Under the pieces are notes generated by a model. It made no database searches. It saw nothing but the letters and a program-made list of their open reading frames with translations, and was not told the origin of the DNA. The position numbers and the translations under genes are program-made. A stretch of DNA of 39,862 bases from Emergencia sp. (lineage in GTDB: Bacteria; Bacillota; Clostridia; Peptostreptococcales; Anaerovoracaceae), in NCBI GenBank assembly GCA_022767345.1, contig JALEOD010000063.1:1-39862 (forward strand), written 5' to 3'. How positions within the stretch are numbered: the first letter of the stretch is position 1; every line of letters starts with the position of its first letter. This document shows, in pieces, positions 51-8,016 of this stretch.

Positions 51-90
51 GTACTAAATCTTGACATAGGACCAGTCTATATCAAAACTT

Positions 91-171
91 TGTCTATCTT
101 TACCTTAACATATGGTCAACAGAATATCGATGCAAAATAAATATTCTTTCATTTTTTTATAAATTATCAGT
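91..171 (-). promoter_or_regulatory. Leftward promoter with degenerate LytTR-type box; its gene lies outside the window
   Basis: On the minus strand a -35 TTGACC (114-119) and a weak -10 TAGACA (91-96) are separated by 17 bp. This region aligns without gaps to the promoter at 2597-2677, including the box: TGAAAGAATATTTATTTT here matches TGACCGAATATTTCTTTT there at 15 of 18 positions, at the same distance from the -35. The second, distal half (161-171) is poorly conserved. I infer another target of the LytTR regulator, or a decayed copy, driving a gene to the left of position 1. Confidence 0.5.
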
Positions 172-179
172 ATTCCTTA

Positions 180-208
180 TTCCGAGCCAAATGAATTTTG
201 GCTCGGAA
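180..208 (-). terminator. Hairpin after the small membrane protein gene
   Basis: A perfect 12-bp stem (180-191 with 197-208, loop 192-196) follows the stop of the gene at 267-455. Only a weak T-rich tail is present, so its termination strength is uncertain. It is the only stable hairpin between that gene and the left edge besides 19-50. Confidence 0.55.
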
Positions 209-266
209 CAAGATTTCTATTTCCATAACTGCATAATTTATATTTAGATTCCTTGTGATACCTAAT

Positions 267-455
267 TTAAATGAGATGAAAGAATGCAGCGGTACTTACA
301 ATTAAAAGCGGTGTTCCCACAATAAACCAAAAGTAGTCAATATACTTTCCAACCCTACTGCTCCAACTCTTGTTTCTATACCTATAAATCATGCTGCTCA
401 AAAGCATGCACTGCGTTATTACACATAGTAATAGCGTAAAATTTATTCTCTCCAT
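267..455 (-). CDS. Small two-helix membrane protein, possible immunity protein
   Basis: This 62-residue protein has two hydrophobic helices, about residues 5-25 and 40-60, joined by a short basic loop (RYRNKSWSSR). I do not recognise a named family. The gene starts 12 bp after the stop of the 345-residue secreted protein, behind a good ribosome site (AAAGGA), so the two are almost certainly co-transcribed and translated as a pair. A tiny membrane protein directly downstream of a secreted effector is the usual layout of immunity proteins for bacteriocin-like toxins; this is inference from position and size only. It could equally be an accessory or anchoring subunit. Confidence 0.6.
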   Translation of the reverse strand: MERINFTLLLCVITQCMLLSSMIYRYRNKSWSSRVGKYIDYFWFIVGTPLLIVSTAAFFHLI

Positions 456-467
456 ATCGCAATCCTT

Positions 468-1505
468 TTATTTAATACATCTCAATTCTATCTTCTTTCC
501 TTTATATTGTCTGCCTTCAACCCATCTACCACCTTGATGTTTGTAATATGCCCAGATTTCATAACCTACTGTAACCTGTGTATAGTTATACCCCATTACA
601 TCTGCAATCGTAGCAAACCCTGATACTATCCAAGATATATTTCCTAAAATAGGTATAAATTTAGAGCCTAATTTCTTTACTACAGCTTCAGTAATTTCTT
701 TTTTGGCTGCATAAGTTAATCCTTTTTCAACACTGCCACCTACGAAAGATGCCAAGCTAATTACACTGTTATCTAAAGTGCATCTCGCTGTCTCATCACT
801 TATCTTATGATTCTGCGGTTTAGTTGATGTCGTCGTTACAGTTACAGGATACGCTGTATTGTCAGTTATATCAGCAACCTGTACCAATGTGTTTCCTTCC
901 ACCTCATAGTGCGTATTGATTTTGTTCCCATTCACATCCTCAGCATACGCTGGCTCTATTATAGCAACAATTTCATCTTCTTCATTTAAAATATACACCC
1001 ATCCTTTCTGGCTCTGTTCTTTCTCTTCTGATCCAGCTTTAGCATTAATTATCTCAGCATAATAATCCTCTGATTTCATCAACTTATACCCAAATGGCAG
1101 TTCATGATGAAATGAATAACTTCTAGGCGCTATTTTATCTTTAAGTGTAACATCCGTTTGTATGCTTGTCAAAGGCACACCCTTTTCTTCTCGCTGTAGT
1201 GTTTTGAGTTTCAATGCTGCATGTCGTTCTCCTCCATATGTCATCACCCCTTCCTCTTCTGCAACGCCTTGTTTCAAACCAAGTTCTTTCGGCAGGTGTA
1301 CAGAAATATTCTCACCTTCAAAGGATGAATCCATTACAACAGCGATTTTAGGATTTTCAGGCAAAGTGAAATCAGCCAACATGTCTGGGCTTAAACTTGT
1401 TTTTGTCGATGGATTGACATTCTGTTCGCCTGCAAATGCTGGTAAAATTGTTGTTGCCATTAATGCAACACTTAACAAACAGCTTAAAAAAGTTCTTTTC
1501 TTCAT
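468..1505 (-). CDS. Secreted protein of unknown function with hydrophobic C-terminal domain (bacteriocin-like candidate)
   Basis: The 345-residue product starts with a clear Sec signal peptide (MKKR, hydrophobic core, cleavage near LPAFAG at about residue 25). A middle region (about 190-230) reads like the 'NGN..THYEVEGNTLVQ...YPVTV' segment I recall from other Gram-positive secreted proteins of unknown role. The last 100 residues form a Gly/Ala-rich hydrophobic stretch ending in a basic aromatic tail. The mature chain has exactly two cysteines, one before this domain (ARC) and one three residues from the end (RCIK), so a disulfide may bracket it. The ribosome site (GACGAGG) is weak. Co-transcription with the 62-residue membrane protein suggests an effector and immunity pair. 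An adhesin or structural surface protein is also possible. The 263 bp upstream (1506-1768) show no gene or strong promoter, so read-through from the gene at 1769-2563 is likely. Confidence 0.7.
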   Translation of the reverse strand: MKKRTFLSCLLSVALMATTILPAFAGEQNVNPSTKTSLSPDMLADFTLPENPKIAVVMDSSFEGENISVHLPKELGLKQGVAEEEGVMTYGGERHAALKLKTLQREEKGVPLTSIQTDVTLKDKIAPRSYSFHHELPFGYKLMKSEDYYAEIINAKAGSEEKEQSQKGWVYILNEEDEIVAIIEPAYAEDVNGNKINTHYEVEGNTLVQVADITDNTAYPVTVTTTSTKPQNHKISDETARCTLDNSVISLASFVGGSVEKGLTYAAKKEITEAVVKKLGSKFIPILGNISWIVSGFATIADVMGYNYTQVTVGYEIWAYYKHQGGRWVEGRQYKGKKIELRCIK

Positions 1506-1768
1506 TTCAGACCTCGTCTTTCTTCTTGACTTATTCTGCTTTATGCCTCATAATGAAGATAGAGTTTTTCTTAATATATGTTTTGTGGGTCCAATCACAT
1601 CATACTTTTGAAAAGCTCTTTCTTTTTATCTTCATAAAGCTTCAAGTCTTTTAGTTCTACAATTTGTACCCCTGTTTATCCCAATCCACCTATTTCCTTT
1701 ACATGATGTTCACTCTCCTTTCGCCAGTTTATTTATTTCAAGCAACTACTTAAAATCTGTTTCATTTT

Positions 1769-2563
1769 TTATGATATCTTTGTCAGATTCCAAGACTGTC
1801 TGACCTTAATCTGTTTTGCGGTCTTATTGATTGCCACATAACCGACTGCTGTGTTTAACTTATATTCTGACGGCACCTCTATCCTTCCATCTTTTCCCTT
1901 AAATGTATAATTGCAGTGCATATTTACATCGGACGCTCCAACGGTTTTTGCAGTTCTATCAGTAATTACCGGCTTAGATTTACTACAAGACCCAGTTACA
2001 ACAGACCAACTCACATCCGCAACACCACTGCGTTCCTCTATCCCATCAGCCGATAACGTATAATGATTCTCTAAACTCATACTTGCAGCAACATTGCTGA
2101 TGGTTACGCTCGCCCTTGCTGTAAAGTAGCGATTTCCGTAATCCTTCCACTGGTCGCTGCTGCCGGATGTTGCCATAGGCGAAATCTGAGGAACCTTTAA
2201 GGCTTGCCCCTCTTCTCTGTCGCTGAGTTCCACGGTAAGTGTGCAACCATCGCCTAAATCATAATTTCTAACTGCGTATGCCGCTCCATCAGGAAGCTGT
2301 TTCATCACCAAATCTCTTTCCTGCGAATTCAATAGTTCTACTGCTTCATCCATCTTTTCAGTCATAAATGCGTCCATTACGCCGCTTTCTGTTTCTTCAA
2401 TAACTGCTTTTTCTTCTGACTCTGTCAAATTCTGATTCAAAGCTGCTTTTAACTGCGATACGCTTTGAATTTTAGCTGGCTTACTTTCTGCAAATATACC
2501 AGTTACGGTTAAACTCATCGTCAAGGATAAGATTAGTAAAACATTAAATAATTTTCTCTTCAT
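1769..2563 (-). CDS. Secreted protein of unknown function, LytTR-regulated
   Basis: The 264-residue product has a Sec signal peptide (MKRKLF, hydrophobic core, cleavage near IFAES at about residue 25). An acidic helical region follows (about 30-90), then a beta-rich C-terminal half (about 130-264) with two cysteines (GSCSK and MHCNY). I recognise no family or catalytic motif. It is the first gene after the kinase and has its own regulated promoter carrying the same 18-bp box as the response-regulator promoter, so it is probably a main output of the two-component system. The start is ATG at 2563, behind AAGAAAGG at somewhat long spacing. Codon use and signal peptide look normal, so this is a real gene. 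Confidence 0.75.
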   Translation of the reverse strand: MKRKLFNVLLILSLTMSLTVTGIFAESKPAKIQSVSQLKAALNQNLTESEEKAVIEETESGVMDAFMTEKMDEAVELLNSQERDLVMKQLPDGAAYAVRNYDLGDGCTLTVELSDREEGQALKVPQISPMATSGSSDQWKDYGNRYFTARASVTISNVAASMSLENHYTLSADGIEERSGVADVSWSVVTGSCSKSKPVITDRTAKTVGASDVNMHCNYTFKGKDGRIEVPSEYKLNTAVGYVAINKTAKQIKVRQSWNLTKIS

Positions 2564-2596
2564 TTTATTTTCTGAACCTTTCTTTATTGTTTATGT

Positions 2597-2677
2597 TTTC
2601 TATCTTCACCTTACCACGGGGTCAACAGATTTTCAATCTAAAAGAAATATTCGGTCAATTTTAGAAATATTTGGTCA
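2597..2677 (-). promoter_or_regulatory. LytTR-type direct-repeat operator and promoter of the 264-residue secreted protein
   Basis: Read on the minus strand, TGACCAAATATTTCT (2663-2677) and TGACCGAATATTTCT (2643-2657) are direct repeats with a 20-bp period. They are followed by -35 TTGACC (2620-2625), a 17-bp spacer and a weak -10 TAGAAA (2597-2602). The distal half overlaps the kinase stop codon (TGA at 2675-2677). Paired direct repeats about two helical turns apart, upstream of a weak promoter, are the usual arrangement for AgrA/PlnC/ComE-type LytTR activators. Binding by the local regulator is inferred. Confidence 0.7.
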
Positions 2678-3997
2678 TAATTTTCCTGTTTCTTCCATTT
2701 TTGCGTCTCGCAGTCGTATATTTGTGACTACCATCTGGCTATTCTTGTCATATTCCCACCAGACCCTTCCTCCATTTCTAGCCGCTGCTTCCTGCATATT
2801 CTTTGTGCCGAGACCATGTCTTTCCTTATTTTGCTTCGTTGTAAGAATATATCCATCAGAAATTGCAGGCTCCGTGCTTGCCTGATTCCAAATGGTGATA
2901 AACAGAAAATCGCCCTGATTGCCCACCTTGCACTCTATCACCTGCTCCCCGTCGCATTTACATGCCGCTTCATAAGCATTGTCCAGTGCATTAGACAGAA
3001 TGACGCATAAGTCTGTCATAGCAACTGATATTCGCTCTGGAAAAAAACCATTAAAGTGCAGCTTAATCCCAGCCTCTTTACATTTTTTGTAATACTGATT
3101 CGCAATAGCGTCACAAATCATATTGCCGGTGCTGATGTAGTATGCTCTTTCTTTTACATCGTAAATTTGGCGAAGATATTCCCCCAGTTCTTCCATCTCA
3201 CCTTTGTCATATAAACTTGTCAGAGTATCCAGATGCTTATTGAAATCATGTCTGAATTTTTTCGACTCTTCGTTGGCATCCCCCATCAGGCGATACTGCT
3301 CTACCTGCTCTTCAATGCAGCGTTCCTTTAAAAGCACCTCCTGTTTCAAACGCTTTTTTTGGAAAAAAATAAATACTACCGCAAACATAAAGCCGATGGT
3401 AATAAAAGCAGTTACTGCATCTTTAATTGAATTTGCACCCTGATACACCATTGCATCATCTGTATCTCCTGCACCCAAATGAATCCATTCTAATGGAAAA
3501 ATATCTAGGACAATAGAAAATAATATATATATATAAGAATTTATACTAATAGCCGCATCATGAATTTTGTCTCTCTTATTATAGAAAAGTCTAATTAACA
3601 AACAAAAAAACATAGCTGTAATAACTTGTGCACAAATGGTATACCAGCTAGAATTCGCATAAAATGCACGACTCTTGAAAAGCACTAACATTACACCATC
3701 AGCTAAATGAATAATCGGCATCGTCACCGCAAAGTACGCAACCCCTAACCCAAAAAGATTCCAACGGTTCCCCTTCAATAGAATCATCGGCAAGATACAG
3801 ATACTGTGAGAAAACAGCCATACCACGTTATAAGGCAGCACATCAATGTAGAACAACATCACAACAAAGGTCGCCACAACAATTCCCGCCCCAATAACAA
3901 CAGAGCTGCGAGTTTTCCGAAACTCGCAGCCTAATATAAATCGAAACAGCAAAAATACATTCAGTAAATCCAAAAGTAAAATGATAGCTGTAGTCAT
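2675..3997 (-). CDS. AgrC-type sensor histidine kinase (GHKL ATPase)
   Basis: The 440-residue product has about six membrane helices in residues 1-212, then a coiled linker and a kinase core. Visible motifs are the phospho-accepting His250 in FRHDFNKH, the N-box around Asn336-Asn340 (NALDNAYEAA), and the G-box HGLGTKN at 394-400. This is the HPK10/AgrC-ComD-PlnB class, which senses secreted peptides and phosphorylates a LytTR regulator. It starts 11 bp after the regulator gene, and its ribosome site (AAAGGAG) overlaps the regulator stop. No AgrB processing protease or AgrD propeptide is visible in the window, so the ligand is unknown. Confidence 0.9.
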   Translation of the reverse strand: MTTAIILLLDLLNVFLLFRFILGCEFRKTRSSVVIGAGIVVATFVVMLFYIDVLPYNVVWLFSHSICILPMILLKGNRWNLFGLGVAYFAVTMPIIHLADGVMLVLFKSRAFYANSSWYTICAQVITAMFFCLLIRLFYNKRDKIHDAAISINSYIYILFSIVLDIFPLEWIHLGAGDTDDAMVYQGANSIKDAVTAFITIGFMFAVVFIFFQKKRLKQEVLLKERCIEEQVEQYRLMGDANEESKKFRHDFNKHLDTLTSLYDKGEMEELGEYLRQIYDVKERAYYISTGNMICDAIANQYYKKCKEAGIKLHFNGFFPERISVAMTDLCVILSNALDNAYEAACKCDGEQVIECKVGNQGDFLFITIWNQASTEPAISDGYILTTKQNKERHGLGTKNMQEAAARNGGRVWWEYDKNSQMVVTNIRLRDAKMEETGKL

Positions 3998-4008
3998 GAC
4001 AGTCTCCT

Positions 4009-4743
4009 TTAGATATACTTCTGCACCTTCTCACAGTAAGCTGCATACTTCTCAAAGCATTCCTTTTTTCTGCGCCGGCTGACTGAAAATTCCCTGTCAC
4101 AGGATTCTCCGCCCGGCTTTTCCAAGATACCCCGCAAAAGAATTCTATCATCTCGAAATGTGCTGATATGCTTGCAGTTAATAATCTGTCCGCTGCTGAT
4201 ACAGATAAATCCCAGCGGTTCAAGCCTTGCTGCAAGTTCTTTCATCCTATGCTTGCCGATATTCTTCACATTGCCGTCTTTCAGATGTACATCCGCATAG
4301 CCGGAATCAGCTGTGATCCACAGAATTTCATCTAAACAGCCGCGGCTTCCATCGGGATAAGTAAAATGCTTATTCGCGAAAATCAAATTAACACCTGTAT
4401 CCAGATAAGCAGATAAATCGGAAAATCGCACCGGCTTGATTAAAAATCCGATGACATTGACGTTAAATGCTCTGGACATATTTTCCGGATAGTTGGTCGC
4501 AAAGATAACCAGCGGCCCGTTCCCCCGTCTTGCCAGCTCATTTTTAATCTCAATGCCGTTCACCTCGCCCATCTCTACATCAAGAATCAGAATGTCCGCC
4601 TCCAAAGGCTCTGCCAGAATCTCCTTAGGATTCATTGTAGTCTCTATTTCCGCGGCAATTTCCTTTTCCTGAAAATAACGAATGCACAGCGTTTCCAGCT
4701 TCTGAATTTCACTAATCTGGTCATCACAAATGATAATCTTCAT
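4009..4743 (-). CDS. LytTR-family response regulator (AgrA-like)
   Basis: This 244-residue regulator has an N-terminal receiver domain with acidic pair Asp7-Asp8, phospho-acceptor Asp55 (LDVEMG) and conserved Lys103 (LIKP), and a C-terminal LytTR DNA-binding domain (about 140-240). It is the first gene of a regulator-kinase operon. Its own promoter carries the same 20-bp-period repeat found upstream of the secreted protein at 1769-2563, which implies positive autoregulation, as is usual for quorum-sensing regulators of this class. Start ATG at 4743 follows GGAGGTTACCT. Target assignment is inferred from the shared boxes. Confidence 0.9.
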   Translation of the reverse strand: MKIIICDDQISEIQKLETLCIRYFQEKEIAAEIETTMNPKEILAEPLEADILILDVEMGEVNGIEIKNELARRGNGPLVIFATNYPENMSRAFNVNVIGFLIKPVRFSDLSAYLDTGVNLIFANKHFTYPDGSRGCLDEILWITADSGYADVHLKDGNVKNIGKHRMKELAARLEPLGFICISSGQIINCKHISTFRDDRILLRGILEKPGGESCDREFSVSRRRKKECFEKYAAYCEKVQKYI

Positions 4744-4823
4744 AGGTAACCTCCAAAGGTATTACATATTACGATATCATTTTACCATAAAAGCAAATAT
4801 CAGAAAAGTATCTTCTTTTATCT

Positions 4824-4893
4824 ATTATACAATATGGCAAATCCCCCTACAACAAAAAAGAAATATTCGGTCATTTTTTTCAATATCTGGTCA
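4824..4893 (-). promoter_or_regulatory. LytTR-type direct-repeat operator and promoter of the regulator-kinase operon
   Basis: On the minus strand, TGACCAGATATTGA (starting at 4893) and TGACCGAATATTTCTTTT (starting at 4873) repeat with a 20-bp period. The second half is identical over 18 bp to the box at 2640-2657. A promoter follows: -35 TTGTAG (4847-4852), 17-bp spacer, consensus -10 TATAAT (4824-4829). The box is 11 bp closer to its -35 than at the 264-residue gene, about one helical turn, so it keeps the same face of the DNA. Confidence 0.7.
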
Positions 4894-4916: not shown

Positions 4917-5624
4917 TTAAGTCAAATCGTAACTGTATTCCAGCAATTTCACCGACTTTTTATATAGCAGCACATTTACAACAATCACTGCTAAATCCAC
5001 AGCAATCCCAATCCAAAAACCGCTTTTTCCAAGCAGCAGCTGCCATTTTGACAGGAAAGTGATGCCGGCTAAGGCTGCTCCAAAAATAATCACAGAAACC
5101 AGCATTGCCAAAAGCATCATGGCCTGCTTGCGCTTTCCGGTAACTACATGACCCAGCGCCAGTTCTACAGTCATAGTCAAAAGGCAAAGGATCGCCGCAT
5201 AAATAAACGGCGTAATCATATCAATGCCGCAGCTGATGCCCACCTGCCACGGCTCCATACCCGCAATCTGCTGTGCGTCCATGCTTCCGCTCAGATACTC
5301 TGCCAAATCGACAAAATGGTTAGGAAGCATCAGCCCTACAGCAAGTCCCATACTGATCAGCCACAAAATACTGCACCAGATTAGAAAAGCAATCAACTTT
5401 CCCGCTGTTAACGCTCTCGCCGAAAAAGGCAGTGTCATCAGCAGCTCTGCGTCGTCGCCAAAAAGTGTTTTCCCATATAGTTTATAAAGGCCATGGCCCA
5501 AAATCAAAACCAGCACAACCATCATCGGCGGCCAAAGAAATATGCCTGTAGCCAGCGCCAGCACCGAACTGCCAATATGACCCGCTAACATTTCCATATG
5601 AATCTGCACAGATTTCATCGTCAT
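4917..5624 (-). CDS. ABC-2-type transporter permease
   Basis: The 235-residue membrane protein has about six hydrophobic helices and no catalytic motif, and looks like a permease of the ABC-2 superfamily that pairs with the ATPase at 6907-7632. The segment 'DDAELLMTLPFSARALTAGK' in the first cytoplasmic loop is typical of these permeases, where it contacts the ATPase. Its ATG overlaps the stop of the preceding WG-repeat gene (ATGA), indicating translational coupling. It is the last gene of the GntR operon. The substrate is unknown; relatives export peptides, antibiotics or act in envelope stress. Confidence 0.75.
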   Translation of the reverse strand: MTMKSVQIHMEMLAGHIGSSVLALATGIFLWPPMMVVLVLILGHGLYKLYGKTLFGDDAELLMTLPFSARALTAGKLIAFLIWCSILWLISMGLAVGLMLPNHFVDLAEYLSGSMDAQQIAGMEPWQVGISCGIDMITPFIYAAILCLLTMTVELALGHVVTGKRKQAMMLLAMLVSVIIFGAALAGITFLSKWQLLLGKSGFWIGIAVDLAVIVVNVLLYKKSVKLLEYSYDLT

Positions 5625-6892
5625 TTTCCTTGCCCCCTTTCCAGCTGCAGTACACCGAATTTTTCCCCTCGAACAACCACAGCCTTTCCGTCTTTCGCCA
5701 GATAAATCTCATCAAAGACAGGTTTCACAATCCATTTGCCCCTCTCATCTGCCACACCGCATTTTTCTCCGTCGCAGATTACTACACGGTCATCTACAAA
5801 ACCAGCTTTCCATCCGGTAAAAAAATCATTCAATGGAAAAACTTCCTCCGACAAAGTCTTTTCAAAAAGGACACGGCCATCTCTGTCAATACAATAAACT
5901 TTCTTTCCGGAAGCATAAATCATCGCTTTCCCCTCGGAAAAATCGGAAGCAAAATCGGCATTCTTTGTTTCAATAACCTGCTTTCCACTCTTGTCAAAAT
6001 ATCCTCTCGGCAAAAGCCCGTTGTCGTTTATATTTCCCTCTATATTGCGTTTTTCCTTAACACCGTAAAATAGACCTTCTGACAGATTGGCAGAAAAGTA
6101 CGTGCTGTCATTAAAGACCGCACCGCCCATGGCAATATTCATATCTTCATCTAAAAACACGGTTCCTGAAACAAATCCCATATATGTTTCGCTGAAAGAA
6201 AAATCTACGATAGCCTTATACCAGCCTTCATACCACTGACTAATCTTAGCGCAAGTATAAGGCAGCTGCTTATACTCTCCGGTCTTCACATCATATAATT
6301 TATTAAACGTATTCACATCATCACCGACAGCTACATAACGGTTATCGACGCCTTCTATTCTTCGTCTCGCAGAAGTCTCTATCATCGTATTCCCCTGCAG
6401 ATCCACCAATCTGTAGCCGCCGTCTTTTCCTTTATGAAGCACTGCGTATGTATCAGACAGTTCCATCAGCACCTCACTCTGCCACAGGTTTTTATTTTTA
6501 AATATGACTTCCTTTTTCTCATTGACATATGTGCTTTGCGTGCCTTCTACAATCTCCCAGATTTCTTTTTCCTTTTCTCCCAGGTAGTCATTGAAAATCC
6601 CATAATCTGACATTGCCGATGTGTTTCTAAAATCTGCCAGTTCCGACGCTCTAACCGCCGGGTCAGCACCTCCTGTATTTCTAAAATAGTAATCAGCATA
6701 ATTAACAACGGTCTGATTTTCAGTCAGCGGCACTTCCCACGTAAACTCCCGCAGATAAGCGATTTCTTCCTCCTGCGCCGAAGCTGCACGCCAGCCTGCT
6801 GCTCCGCAAATTACCGCAAGAGCCAGCACCCCTGCGCCAAGGCCCGCACATATCCATGTCCACTTTTCCGTTCCTTTCAACTTGCCGTTCAT
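5621..6892 (-). CDS. Membrane-anchored WG-repeat protein
   Basis: The 423-residue product has an N-terminal membrane anchor (about residues 12-33) and a long extracytoplasmic part. From about residue 150 it shows degenerate WG (KWG) beta-repeats: 'YRLVDLQGNTMIE', 'GYFDKSGKQVIET', 'YCIDRDGRVLFEK', 'CGVADERGKWIVKPVFDEI' and 'KFGVLQL'. WG repeats are thought to mediate binding. It lies between the ATPase and the permease, starts behind AGGAGG, and overlaps the permease start, so it is probably an extracellular partner of the transporter. The first 130 residues are not recognisable. Function is unknown. Confidence 0.75.
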   Translation of the reverse strand: MNGKLKGTEKWTWICAGLGAGVLALAVICGAAGWRAASAQEEEIAYLREFTWEVPLTENQTVVNYADYYFRNTGGADPAVRASELADFRNTSAMSDYGIFNDYLGEKEKEIWEIVEGTQSTYVNEKKEVIFKNKNLWQSEVLMELSDTYAVLHKGKDGGYRLVDLQGNTMIETSARRRIEGVDNRYVAVGDDVNTFNKLYDVKTGEYKQLPYTCAKISQWYEGWYKAIVDFSFSETYMGFVSGTVFLDEDMNIAMGGAVFNDSTYFSANLSEGLFYGVKEKRNIEGNINDNGLLPRGYFDKSGKQVIETKNADFASDFSEGKAMIYASGKKVYCIDRDGRVLFEKTLSEEVFPLNDFFTGWKAGFVDDRVVICDGEKCGVADERGKWIVKPVFDEIYLAKDGKAVVVRGEKFGVLQLERGQGK

Positions 6893-6906
6893 AAGATTTC
6901 TGCCTC

Positions 6907-7632
6907 CTAAAAAATCTGCTTCACAGCTTCTTCTAAATTACTGCCAAACCTTGCCCGCACATCATCACAAGGCTCAAACATTGCAACACTGCCGTCTTTT
7001 AAAACGATTACCGAGTCAAATAAACGCTCCACCTCTGAAATCAGATGCGTCGCCACCAAAATCGTTCCTTTTGTGTCAAAGCTTTCCAAAATCACATCCA
7101 GCACCTGATCTCTCGCCTTAACGTCCACCCCACCCAGAGGCTCGTCCAGCAAATAAAGACTCGCCTTTCTGCTCATGGCTAAGCTGATTTGCACTTTATC
7201 TATCATGCCCTTTGACATTTCCTGAAAAGGGGTCTTACTGTCTATCTCAAAGCTGTCCATCAGCTGCTCAAAATGTGCCTCATCAAAATCCTCAAAATAG
7301 TTCCTGTAGATTTCTTTAATTTCTCCTGCTGTACGCTTCAGCGAAAAAGCCGGCCGATCCGGCAGATAGGATACTTTCGCCTTGCTGAAAGCACCGGGCC
7401 TCATGCCGTCTATTAAAACTTCTCCCTCATAGCCGGTATAGAGCCCTGCCAAAATTTTCAAAAGCGTAGTCTTGCCGCTGCCGTTAGCGCCCAATAGTCC
7501 GATAATCCGCCCTCTGGAAATTTCCAAATTCACATCCCGCAGCGCCGCCACAGTCCCAAAATTCTTTCTAAGCCCGCAAATCCGCACAATAGGCGGTTCT
7601 TCAACCAAAGTCAATGTTCTTTCCATCATCAT
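6907..7632 (-). CDS. ABC transporter ATP-binding protein
   Basis: This 241-residue ATPase has Walker A (GANGSGKTTLLK), a degenerate signature (EMSKGMIDKVQ in place of LSGGQ, as in many ABC-2 exporters), Walker B (LYLLDEPLGGVD) and the switch His (LVATH). The 5' end has three in-frame ATG codons (7624-7632) behind AAGGGGA, so the start may be off by one or two residues. It lies 6 bp after the GntR gene and presumably powers the permease at 4917-5624. The substrate cannot be read from the sequence. Confidence 0.9.
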   Translation of the reverse strand: MMMERTLTLVEEPPIVRICGLRKNFGTVAALRDVNLEISRGRIIGLLGANGSGKTTLLKILAGLYTGYEGEVLIDGMRPGAFSKAKVSYLPDRPAFSLKRTAGEIKEIYRNYFEDFDEAHFEQLMDSFEIDSKTPFQEMSKGMIDKVQISLAMSRKASLYLLDEPLGGVDVKARDQVLDVILESFDTKGTILVATHLISEVERLFDSVIVLKDGSVAMFEPCDDVRARFGSNLEEAVKQIF

Positions 7633-7638
7633 TTCCCC

Positions 7639-8016
7639 TTATACTGCTGCGCTTTCTTCTGCCTCAGTCCCTCGAAAAAAATCTTCAATCTGCCCTTTAG
7701 AAAAGCCCAGTTCCTTCATTTTCTGCAAAAAATCCCCAACAACTTTCTGCGCTGCTTCCTCACGGGCTGTGTCGATCACACTTCTGTCTTCGGTTACAAA
7801 ACGACCGCTGGTTCGCTCGGAAATCAAAATTCCTTCTCGCTCCAGTTCCGACAGCGCTCTTTGCATCGTATTGGGATTCACCCCAAAGTCTTCCGCAAGT
7901 TCCCGCACTGCAGCCACCTTTGCGCCCGGCGCAAGCTCTCCGGAAATAACTGCCGCCCGAATCTTATCCATAATCTGCATATATATCGGTAGATTCTCGT
8001 TTAAAATCTTATCCAT
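7639..8016 (-). CDS. GntR-family (YtrA-type) transcriptional regulator
   Basis: The 125-residue protein has an N-terminal winged-helix domain (about 10-75; 'LPIYMQIMDKIRAAVISGEL' and 'VNPNTMQRALSELEREG') and a short helical tail of about 45 residues with no ligand-binding domain. This is the YtrA subfamily, which typically represses its own ABC transporter operon. It heads the four-gene operon, and an imperfect dyad overlaps its promoter. The inducer is unknown; several relatives respond to cell-wall antibiotics. Confidence 0.9.
   Translation of the reverse strand: MDKILNENLPIYMQIMDKIRAAVISGELAPGAKVAAVRELAEDFGVNPNTMQRALSELEREGILISERTSGRFVTEDRSVIDTAREEAAQKVVGDFLQKMKELGFSKGQIEDFFRGTEAEESAAV

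What the first reader, a model, noticed from the sequence alone, without database searches (positions are those of the whole stretch)
61..4893. Self-contained LytTR two-component regulon exporting two unknown secreted proteins
An AgrA/AgrC-type pair is followed by two Sec-secreted proteins of unrecognised family and a tiny membrane protein, and the system carries the same operator in front of the regulator and the first secreted protein. This resembles bacteriocin or quorum-sensing regulons, but the effectors match nothing I know. It is the best candidate here for an undescribed system.
Basis: partly seen in the sequence, partly recalled or inferred. Interest (0 to 1): 0.72.

Follow-up and report, generated by a model that had tools for sequence, protein, structure and literature searches.

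The report
Two-component-controlled swappable bacteriocin operon
A gut-type Clostridia genome carries a sensor-regulator pair that appears to switch on its own secreted antibacterial protein and a small membrane protein that probably protects the producer; in related bacteria the same regulators and first secreted gene sit beside different, exchanged effectors.

Summary
Five minus-strand genes (4743 down to 267) encode a LytTR response regulator, an AgrC-like kinase, two secreted proteins and a 62-residue membrane protein. A 20-bp-period direct-repeat operator stands before the regulator and before the first secreted gene (sec1). The exact doublet occurs at one other place in the genome, a looser one at another.

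The second secreted protein (sec2) can be placed: its N-terminal half is the pro-domain of a phage protein annotated as closticin. Across the family this pro-domain joins unrelated C-terminal domains, and a small membrane gene usually follows that changes with the C-terminal class. That is the signature of polymorphic toxin and immunity genes.

Regulator, kinase and sec1 are alike in 45 of 45 pairs among 10 loci; the second secreted gene in 2 of 36 among 9. In the closest relative it is replaced outright. Sec1 matches no family or fold; copies of its 3' end precede further cassettes in two loci.

Best reading: an autoregulated, Sec-secreted bacteriocin locus with exchangeable effector-immunity cassettes. 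Toxicity, processing, signal and sec1's role are untested. A new variant of a known kind.

The parts
4860..4893 (-). operator doublet, 20-bp period, before the regulator
   Evidence: 0 mismatches to the pattern; a doublet at the same position in six other loci
4009..4743 (-). LytTR response regulator, 244 aa
   Evidence: Response_reg 2.5e-11, LytTR 9.6e-7
2675..3997 (-). AgrC-like GHKL histidine kinase, 440 aa, seven hydrophobic segments in a simple hydropathy scan
   Evidence: HATPase_c_5 9.2e-19; AgrC model 4.1e-9, far below its cut-off
2644..2677 (-). operator doublet before sec1 (overlaps the kinase stop)
2597..2625 (-). promoter-like TTGACC-17-TAGAAA of sec1 (read by eye)
   Evidence: 48 bp of this region recur on contig C40 at 98%
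1769..2563 (-). sec1, 264 aa, signal peptide by inspection, recurrent partner of the two-component pair, no known family
468..1505 (-). sec2, 345 aa, predicted preprobacteriocin / polymorphic toxin precursor, signal peptide by inspection
819..1373 (-). sec2 pro-domain shared with a closticin-annotated protein
   Evidence: profile A4, 4.5e-63; phage protein annotated 'putative closticin' 2.2e-46
471..818 (-). sec2 C-terminal domain, class with the KHQGGRWV motif; predicted helices plus long beta hairpin, low confidence
267..455 (-). 62-aa protein with two membrane segments, predicted immunity protein; a 64-aa paralogue (34%) lies on contig C40
91..152 (-). degenerate operator half-site (136-152) and promoter-like TTGACC-17-TAGACA pointing to the contig end
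1..56 (.). end of an insertion sequence at the contig edge (inferred)
   Evidence: 19-base terminal motif TAGTACAAGTYAAAATGAG also at the start of contig C40; that C40 end recurs at the starts of contigs C41 and C48

Best explanation
This is an autoregulated LytTR two-component locus that controls a Sec-secreted antibacterial protein and its immunity protein.

Shown by sequence: the regulator-kinase pair, the same operator before the regulator and before sec1, and a run of genes sec1-sec2-62 aa downstream of it. Sec2 has a pro-domain shared with a closticin-annotated protein, followed by one of many unrelated C-terminal domains. The second secreted gene differs between loci whose regulator, kinase and sec1 are homologous.

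Inferred: the kinase senses an unknown extracellular cue and phosphorylates the regulator. The regulator binds the two 20-bp-spaced repeats, raises its own level and turns on sec1-sec2-62 aa. Sec2 leaves through Sec, a protease frees the ~115-residue C-terminal part, and that part attacks the membrane of competitors. The 62-residue two-helix protein protects the producer. Sec1 is co-secreted and may help delivery or sensing; its role is open. Further operator-promoter modules and a 64-aa immunity-like gene on contig C40 suggest that the regulon continues beyond the insertion sequence as an immunity array.
For: Operator doublet before sec1 in 9 of 11 regulator-kinase loci examined, and also before the regulator in 7 of those 9. 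Genome-wide the exact doublet is at 3 places: regulator, sec1 and C40.

Regulator, kinase and sec1 alike in 45 of 45 pairs each among 10 loci; the second secreted gene alike in 2 of 36 pairs among 9 loci. Closest relative L119: regulator 57%, kinase 45%, sec1 57% identical, no similarity in the second gene.

Sec2 pro-domain profile matches the phage protein deposited as 'putative closticin' (E 2.2e-46) and actinobacterial plasmid proteins annotated DUF4258 and TNT (1.4e-24, 1.6e-18).

20 of 27 family members are followed within 100 bp by a small membrane gene, against 35 of 254 other genes. Downstream genes are alike in 12 of 43 pairs with similar C-terminal domains against 1 of 210 pairs without (permutation 0.0002).

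Closticin 574 is a 309-aa precursor cut to an 82-aa C-terminal bacteriocin (PMC10888436, passages). Enterococcal FsrA (LytTR) controls EntV, a Sec-exported precursor trimmed to 68 C-terminal residues (PMC5454873, passages).
Against: The two lines of evidence meet only in the window: among the regulator-kinase loci fetched, it alone carries a sec2-type pro-domain protein. The pro-domain and immunity evidence comes from loci with other regulators or none. The one link is a weak match of the window's C-terminal class in L045 (E 2.2e-5) and, not significant, C55 (0.15).

Sec1 also occurs without the pair: L037, L039, L052, the weak relatives L040 and L041, and L049 with a regulator only.

The window's own C-terminal domain is not closticin-like: no pair with L077. 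Its 62-aa protein does not align significantly with the 70-73-aa partners of the same class (E 0.25-0.44). 7 of 27 family members lack a small membrane gene within 100 bp (two at contig ends). Close relatives inflate the pair counts.

No toxin family matches sec2 in Pfam, NCBIfam, PHROGs or PADLOC. A cell-free test of one closticin-like bacteriocin of Bacillus altitudinis showed no activity against the two indicators used (PMC10888436, passage). The signal sensed is unknown.
Confidence: 0.7

Rival explanations
1. A self-directed (cannibalism or lysis) toxin locus: the secreted protein kills non-producing siblings, and the membrane protein is both immunity and signal relay, as recalled for SdpC/SdpI of Bacillus subtilis.
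For: Secreted precursor plus small membrane protein plus autoregulation; exchange of effectors between close relatives also fits kin discrimination.
Against: No SdpI/SdpR-type match among the nine genes scanned at the locus (the rest of the genome was not searched for them); the 62-aa protein has only two membrane segments.
Confidence: 0.12
2. A surface or matrix system: sec1 and sec2 are structural or adhesive proteins, and the small membrane protein is an anchor or assembly factor.
For: Sec1 and the sec2 pro-domain are beta-rich in the models; no known toxin domain in sec2.
Against: C-terminal domain class and downstream gene change together; the pro-domain is shared with closticin- and toxin-annotated proteins.
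Confidence: 0.12
3. An agr-type quorum-sensing circuit in which a processed piece of sec1 or sec2 is the pheromone for the kinase.
For: AgrC-like kinase and LytTR regulator; autoregulation; sec1 recurs next to the kinase.
Against: No AgrB in the genome; no small pheromone gene was noticed, though no dedicated search for one was made; sec1 also occurs without the kinase.
Confidence: 0.06

Closest known systems
Closticin 574 and closticin-574-like bacteriocins
   Same: Signal peptide, long pro-domain, C-terminal effector part; pro-domain homologous to a phage protein deposited as 'putative closticin'; architecture as described in PMC10888436 (passages).
   Different: The window's C-terminal domain belongs to another class; control by an adjacent LytTR two-component system; sec1 partner; effectors exchanged between loci. 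Not compared with the closticin 574 sequence itself (paper not held).
Fsr-regulated enterocin O16 / EntV of Enterococcus faecalis
   Same: LytTR regulator controlling a Sec-exported precursor whose C-terminal part is the active peptide (PMC5454873, passages).
   Different: Sec2 has no EntV match in NCBIfam; no AgrB/FsrB-like gene found; regulator and effector sit in one locus here, ef1097 about 800 kb from fsr there.
Polymorphic toxin-immunity systems (CDI, Rhs, LXG and others)
   Same: Conserved N-terminal part, variable C-terminal part, immunity-like gene downstream, displaced cassettes. [quoted passage not shown]
   Different: Effector precursors are short; the gene conserved at the locus and duplicated before displaced cassettes is a separate secreted protein, sec1.
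Streptococcal blp/sil-type bacteriocin regulons
   Same: Recalled: LytTR two-component control, direct-repeat operators, arrays of bacteriocin and immunity genes.
   Different: No double-glycine leader peptide or dedicated ABC exporter-protease noticed among the operon genes; export appears to be Sec-dependent.

Membership tests
Closticin-574-type preprobacteriocin | N-terminal Sec signal peptide | tested here: met
   Read by eye from the translation; no signal-peptide program was available
Closticin-574-type preprobacteriocin | homologous pro-domain of about 180 residues | tested here: met
   Profile A4, with sec2 as first row, matches the 'putative closticin' phage protein at 2.2e-46; the link to closticin 574 itself rests on that deposited name
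Closticin-574-type preprobacteriocin | closticin-like C-terminal bacteriocin | tested here: not met
   Window C-terminal domain not similar to that of L077, the member close to the phage closticin
Closticin-574-type preprobacteriocin | extracellular processing and antibacterial activity | not testable with these tools
   needs a bench assay
Polymorphic toxin-immunity system | conserved N-terminal domain with variable C-terminal domains | tested here: met
   Among 23 members, 253 of 253 pairs alike in the N-terminal domain, 43 of 253 in the C-terminal domain
Polymorphic toxin-immunity system | downstream gene that covaries with the C-terminal domain | tested here: met
   12 of 43 against 1 of 210 pairs, permutation 0.0002; relatedness not controlled
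Polymorphic toxin-immunity system | window's own 62-aa protein homologous to partners of the same C-terminal class | tested here: inconclusive
   No significant alignment; its paralogue on C40 is 34% identical
Polymorphic toxin-immunity system | displaced or orphan cassettes | tested here: met
   Orphan C-terminal fragment with a 62-aa two-helix gene in L076; sec1 3'-end copies before further cassette genes in L118 and L035
Polymorphic toxin-immunity system | toxicity neutralised by the immunity protein | not testable with these tools
   needs a bench assay
agr/Fsr quorum-sensing locus | LytTR regulator with an AgrC-like GHKL kinase | tested here: met
agr/Fsr quorum-sensing locus | AgrB-type processing protein | tested here: not met
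   PF04647: no match in the own genome at E <= 0.01, genome 99.5% complete; none of the 14 control genomes passed the cut-off either, so the controls do not show the search's sensitivity
EntV bacteriocin family | match to the NCBIfam EntV model | tested here: not met
   no NCBIfam hit for sec2 up to E 1; the relative L077 gives only 0.085

The most novel reading that the evidence does not exclude
Closticin 574 is one exposed member of a modular Gram-positive weapon. A Sec-exported pro-domain carries exchangeable membrane-active C-terminal domains, and in this lineage new effector-immunity cassettes enter by recombination at the 3' end of a separate, conserved secreted gene (sec1), while a LytTR two-component system whose operator changes from lineage to lineage keeps every cassette under one switch. 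Sec1 would then be both the recombination anchor and an essential partner of all the effectors.
Probability: 0.35. Interest if true: 0.75.

Novelty: new variant of a known kind. Interest (0 to 1): 0.58.

Why it matters
Closticin 574 is described as an unusual bacteriocin (PMC10888436, passage). If this reading holds, its pro-domain is a general carrier for many different C-terminal effectors, and anaerobic gut-type Clostridia have inducible antagonism loci that current libraries miss (Pfam, NCBIfam, PHROGs, PADLOC). The conserved operator makes the regulon directly findable and testable. The work also suggests a function for DUF2599, which appears here as one of the exchangeable C-terminal domains.

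Tried and rejected
Rejected: the upstream GntR-ABC-WG cassette (4917-8016) as part of the system. Its permease and WG-repeat protein were matched in none of the loci. Its GntR regulator and ABC ATPase gave only generic matches, two of them in loci with the pair (GntR 5e-4 about 1 kb before the regulator in L035; ABC ATPases in L125) and one in L037, which lacks it. The closest relative, L119, has none. Not supported: phage or plasmid carriage of sec1 (0 relatives in viral contigs; 0 in plasmids). Rejected: membership in EntV. Not supported: AgrBD signalling. G110/L042 was dropped as a false sec1 hit; the match covers only the first 66 residues.

Led nowhere: PDB sequence searches of both secreted families (no meaningful hit); Foldseek of both models (no match at E <= 0.001); first genome-collection scan with sec1 alone (0 relatives), repeated with an alignment (10 loci); profile comparison of the 62-aa protein with the 70-73-aa proteins; paper searches on polymorphic toxins with LytTR, on DUF2599, on Emergencia and on closticin with regulators, in whose listings I saw no paper describing this system. 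The listings were capped at 15 and 12 titles of 334 and 57.

Dropped before counts. One search used 27 members whose pro-domain match reaches profile position 170 or more and whose C-terminal part has at least 90 residues; the covariation test used the 23 with a downstream ORF within 100 bp. One search left L125 out (sec1 fragment only) and left G740 out of the second-gene comparison; the second gene of C55 entered as a split ORF. L117, L118 and L120 repeat L043, L045 and L044, and five of the ten loci repeat loci already held; none was counted twice. The scan printed only repeats containing GACC or TGCAAT, chosen after looking. The ORFs are mechanical, not curated genes.

Full report
OBSERVATION. 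Pfam identifies the regulator (Response_reg plus LytTR) and the GHKL kinase; sec1, sec2 and the 62-aa protein have no significant Pfam or NCBIfam match. Both secreted proteins begin with a signal-peptide-like stretch (read by eye). The kinase has seven hydrophobic segments in a simple hydropathy scan.

OPERATOR. The exact doublet (two half-sites, GACC start to start 20 bp) is found at three places in the own genome: before the regulator, before sec1, and on contig C40. The reversed pattern gives none. A fourth place, with three mismatches, on contig C11 is also a clean 20-bp doublet. It lies before a 226-aa membrane protein, beside a 189-aa secreted protein and two tandem 55-60-aa membrane proteins, with no match to the regulator, kinase, sec1 or sec2 within the 19.5 kb read. 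It may be a satellite of the regulon (inferred). In other loci a 20-bp doublet stands before sec1 in L034, L035, L036, L038, L043, L044, L045 and L119, and also before the regulator in L035, L038, L043, L044, L045 and L119. With the window, that is 9 of 11 regulator-kinase loci before sec1, and 7 of those also before the regulator. L036 has TGCAAT in place of GACC. L125, where sec1 is only a fragment, shows a degraded likeness read by eye, and L122 shows nothing convincing. In L034 the regulator starts 132 bases from the contig end. Half-sites differ between loci but agree between the two operators of one locus, as expected if each regulator coevolved with its own sites. That AgrA binds two direct repeats upstream of its promoters is stated in PMC4227749 (passages); the usual 21-22-bp LytTR period is recalled, not from a call.

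CONSERVED CORE, EXCHANGED EFFECTOR. Sec1 is a narrow family: 15 of 349 genomes of the window's family; 10 loci in a scan of the public genome collection, five of them already held, one from Emergencia sp. 1XD21-10 (Emergencia belongs to Anaerovoracaceae); none found in viral contigs or plasmids. Among 10 regulator-kinase-sec1 loci all 45 pairs are alike in the regulator, in the kinase and in sec1, while the second secreted gene is alike in 2 of 36 pairs among 9 loci. The closest relative, L119, has regulator 57%, kinase 45% and sec1 57% identical and nearly the same operator, but its second secreted gene is an unrelated 181-aa protein followed by a 94-aa membrane protein. Sec1 is not tied to the pair everywhere: L037, L039, L052 and the weak relatives L040 and L041 lack it, and L049 has a LytTR regulator but no kinase in its 4.5 kb. 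A paralogous locus on contig C55 of the own genome looks decayed: its sec1 ORF lacks the signal-peptide start and the next gene is split into two ORFs.

WHAT SEC2 IS. Sec2 relatives occur in 13 of 197 family genomes by single sequence and 27 of 349 by a pro-domain profile, but in only 2 of 398 genomes sampled across the phylum, one of them the own genome. They share residues 45-229 and then diverge into different C-terminal classes. One member, L077, is 43.9% identical over 74% of its length to a Paenibacillus phage BN12 stretch that contains a gene deposited as 'putative closticin'. The pro-domain profile matches that protein at 2.2e-46, and also matches actinobacterial plasmid proteins annotated as DUF4258 (1.4e-24) and TNT (1.6e-18) domain proteins (Pfam gives DUF4258 4.5e-4, just under its cut-off). 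DUF2599 forms the C-terminal domain of L084, L086 and L106. Closticin 574 is described as a 309-aa precursor with a probable 27-aa signal peptide and an 82-aa C-terminal active part (PMC10888436, passages). Sec2's own C-terminal domain belongs to a class (KHQGGRWV motif) shared with L074, L075, L097, with fragments in L076 and L094, and weakly with L045, not to the closticin class.

IMMUNITY SIGNATURE. Of 27 members with a complete pro-domain end and a C-terminal part of at least 90 residues, 20 are followed within 100 bp by a membrane protein of at most 260 residues; of 254 other genes of at least 100 residues in the same loci, 35 are. The seven misses are L076, L094, L084, L088, L104 and two at contig ends (L099, L101); L076 and L104 have such a gene 269 and 348 bp on. 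Pairs with similar C-terminal domains have similar downstream genes in 12 of 43 cases, pairs without in 1 of 210 (5000 permutations, 0.0002). Relatedness is not controlled, and some members come from near relatives. The window's 62-aa protein is not detectably related to the 70-73-aa partners of its class, but has a 34%-identical 64-aa paralogue on C40.

WHERE THE TWO LINES MEET. Among the regulator-kinase loci fetched, only the window carries a sec2-type pro-domain protein. The immunity statistics therefore come from loci under other or unknown control, and the operator and core conservation from loci with other effectors. The weak C-terminal match in L045, a regulator-kinase locus, is the one bridge.

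CASSETTE EXCHANGE. In L118 a 187-nt copy of the sec1 3' end (90.9%) lies about 290 nt before a second effector gene, which a membrane gene follows; in L035 a 93-nt copy (94.6%) lies before further cassette genes; in L124 a sec1 3'-end fragment precedes a 73-aa protein with a hydrophobic stretch. This suggests insertion of new cassettes by recombination at the 3' end of sec1. L076 carries an orphan C-terminal fragment with a 62-aa two-helix gene behind an intact relative.

THE OTHER SIDE OF THE CONTIG BREAK. The window begins inside what looks like an insertion sequence. The same 19-base terminal motif faces it at the start of contig C40, and the C40 end is repeated at the starts of contigs C41 and C48. 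C40 then carries an operator-promoter module, the 64-aa paralogue, a 206-aa membrane-anchored protein, and two more modules. One module shares 48 bp (98%) with the sec1 promoter region. The 206-aa protein has relatives inside the corresponding loci L044 and L125. Continuity of C57 and C40 is likely but inferred.

STRUCTURE. The sec1 model (pLDDT 78.8, pTM 0.76; 12 sequences) has N-terminal helices and a long-stranded beta domain carrying the invariant residues; no PDB match at E <= 0.001. The sec2 model (pLDDT 69.2, pTM 0.64) is well defined for much of the pro-domain and poor for the C-terminal part; no PDB match at E <= 0.001.

CONTROL BY OTHER REGULATORS. In 5 of 17 sec2-type loci (L074, L075, L076, L078, L081) a gene of one ECF sigma-like group lies near the effector; for L074 Pfam and NCBIfam confirm an ECF sigma factor, followed by a DUF4367 protein. 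The effector module is therefore not tied to LytTR control; the LytTR-sec1 combination is one way of running it.

MECHANISM AND LIMITS. The membrane-active mode is inferred from the hydrophobic stretch of the C-terminal domain and from the small membrane partner; processing is inferred from closticin 574 and EntV. No expression, activity or signal data exist here.

Noticed in passing
L129 8008-10240 (own contig C11, 90507-92739): A looser operator doublet at L129:9448 precedes a 226-aa membrane protein, beside a 189-aa secreted protein and two tandem 55-60-aa membrane proteins; a possible satellite of the regulon without its own regulator.
   Followed up: partly
L045 6164-7662: An AbiEi/AbiEii toxin-antitoxin pair lies between kinase and sec1, with the operator doublet before sec1 still present.
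   Followed up: partly
L074, L075, L078: ECF sigma gene, an anti-sigma-like gene (DUF4367 in L074), a small secreted ~140-aa protein, a sec2-type effector and a small membrane gene recur together, a second regulatory solution for the same effector type.
   Followed up: partly
L084 6158-7114, L086 2-1183, L106 5964-7010: DUF2599 is the C-terminal domain of sec2-type precursors; in L086 and L106 a 225-253-aa three-helix membrane gene follows directly (not in L084), which suggests that DUF2599 is a toxin domain.
   Followed up: partly
L080 4097-10391: A sister species of the window's genus has two sec2-type effectors, each with its own small membrane gene, plus an effector of the L036/L043/L044 type, but no sec1 match.
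   Followed up: no
L020 196-316 and 1228-1343: Duplication (83%) of a stretch that joins the 206-aa gene's 3' end to an operator-promoter module on contig C40.
   Followed up: partly
window 4917-8016: GntR regulator, ABC ATPase, WG-repeat protein and ABC permease form a separate cassette upstream; the WG-repeat protein lies between the two transporter genes.
   Followed up: no
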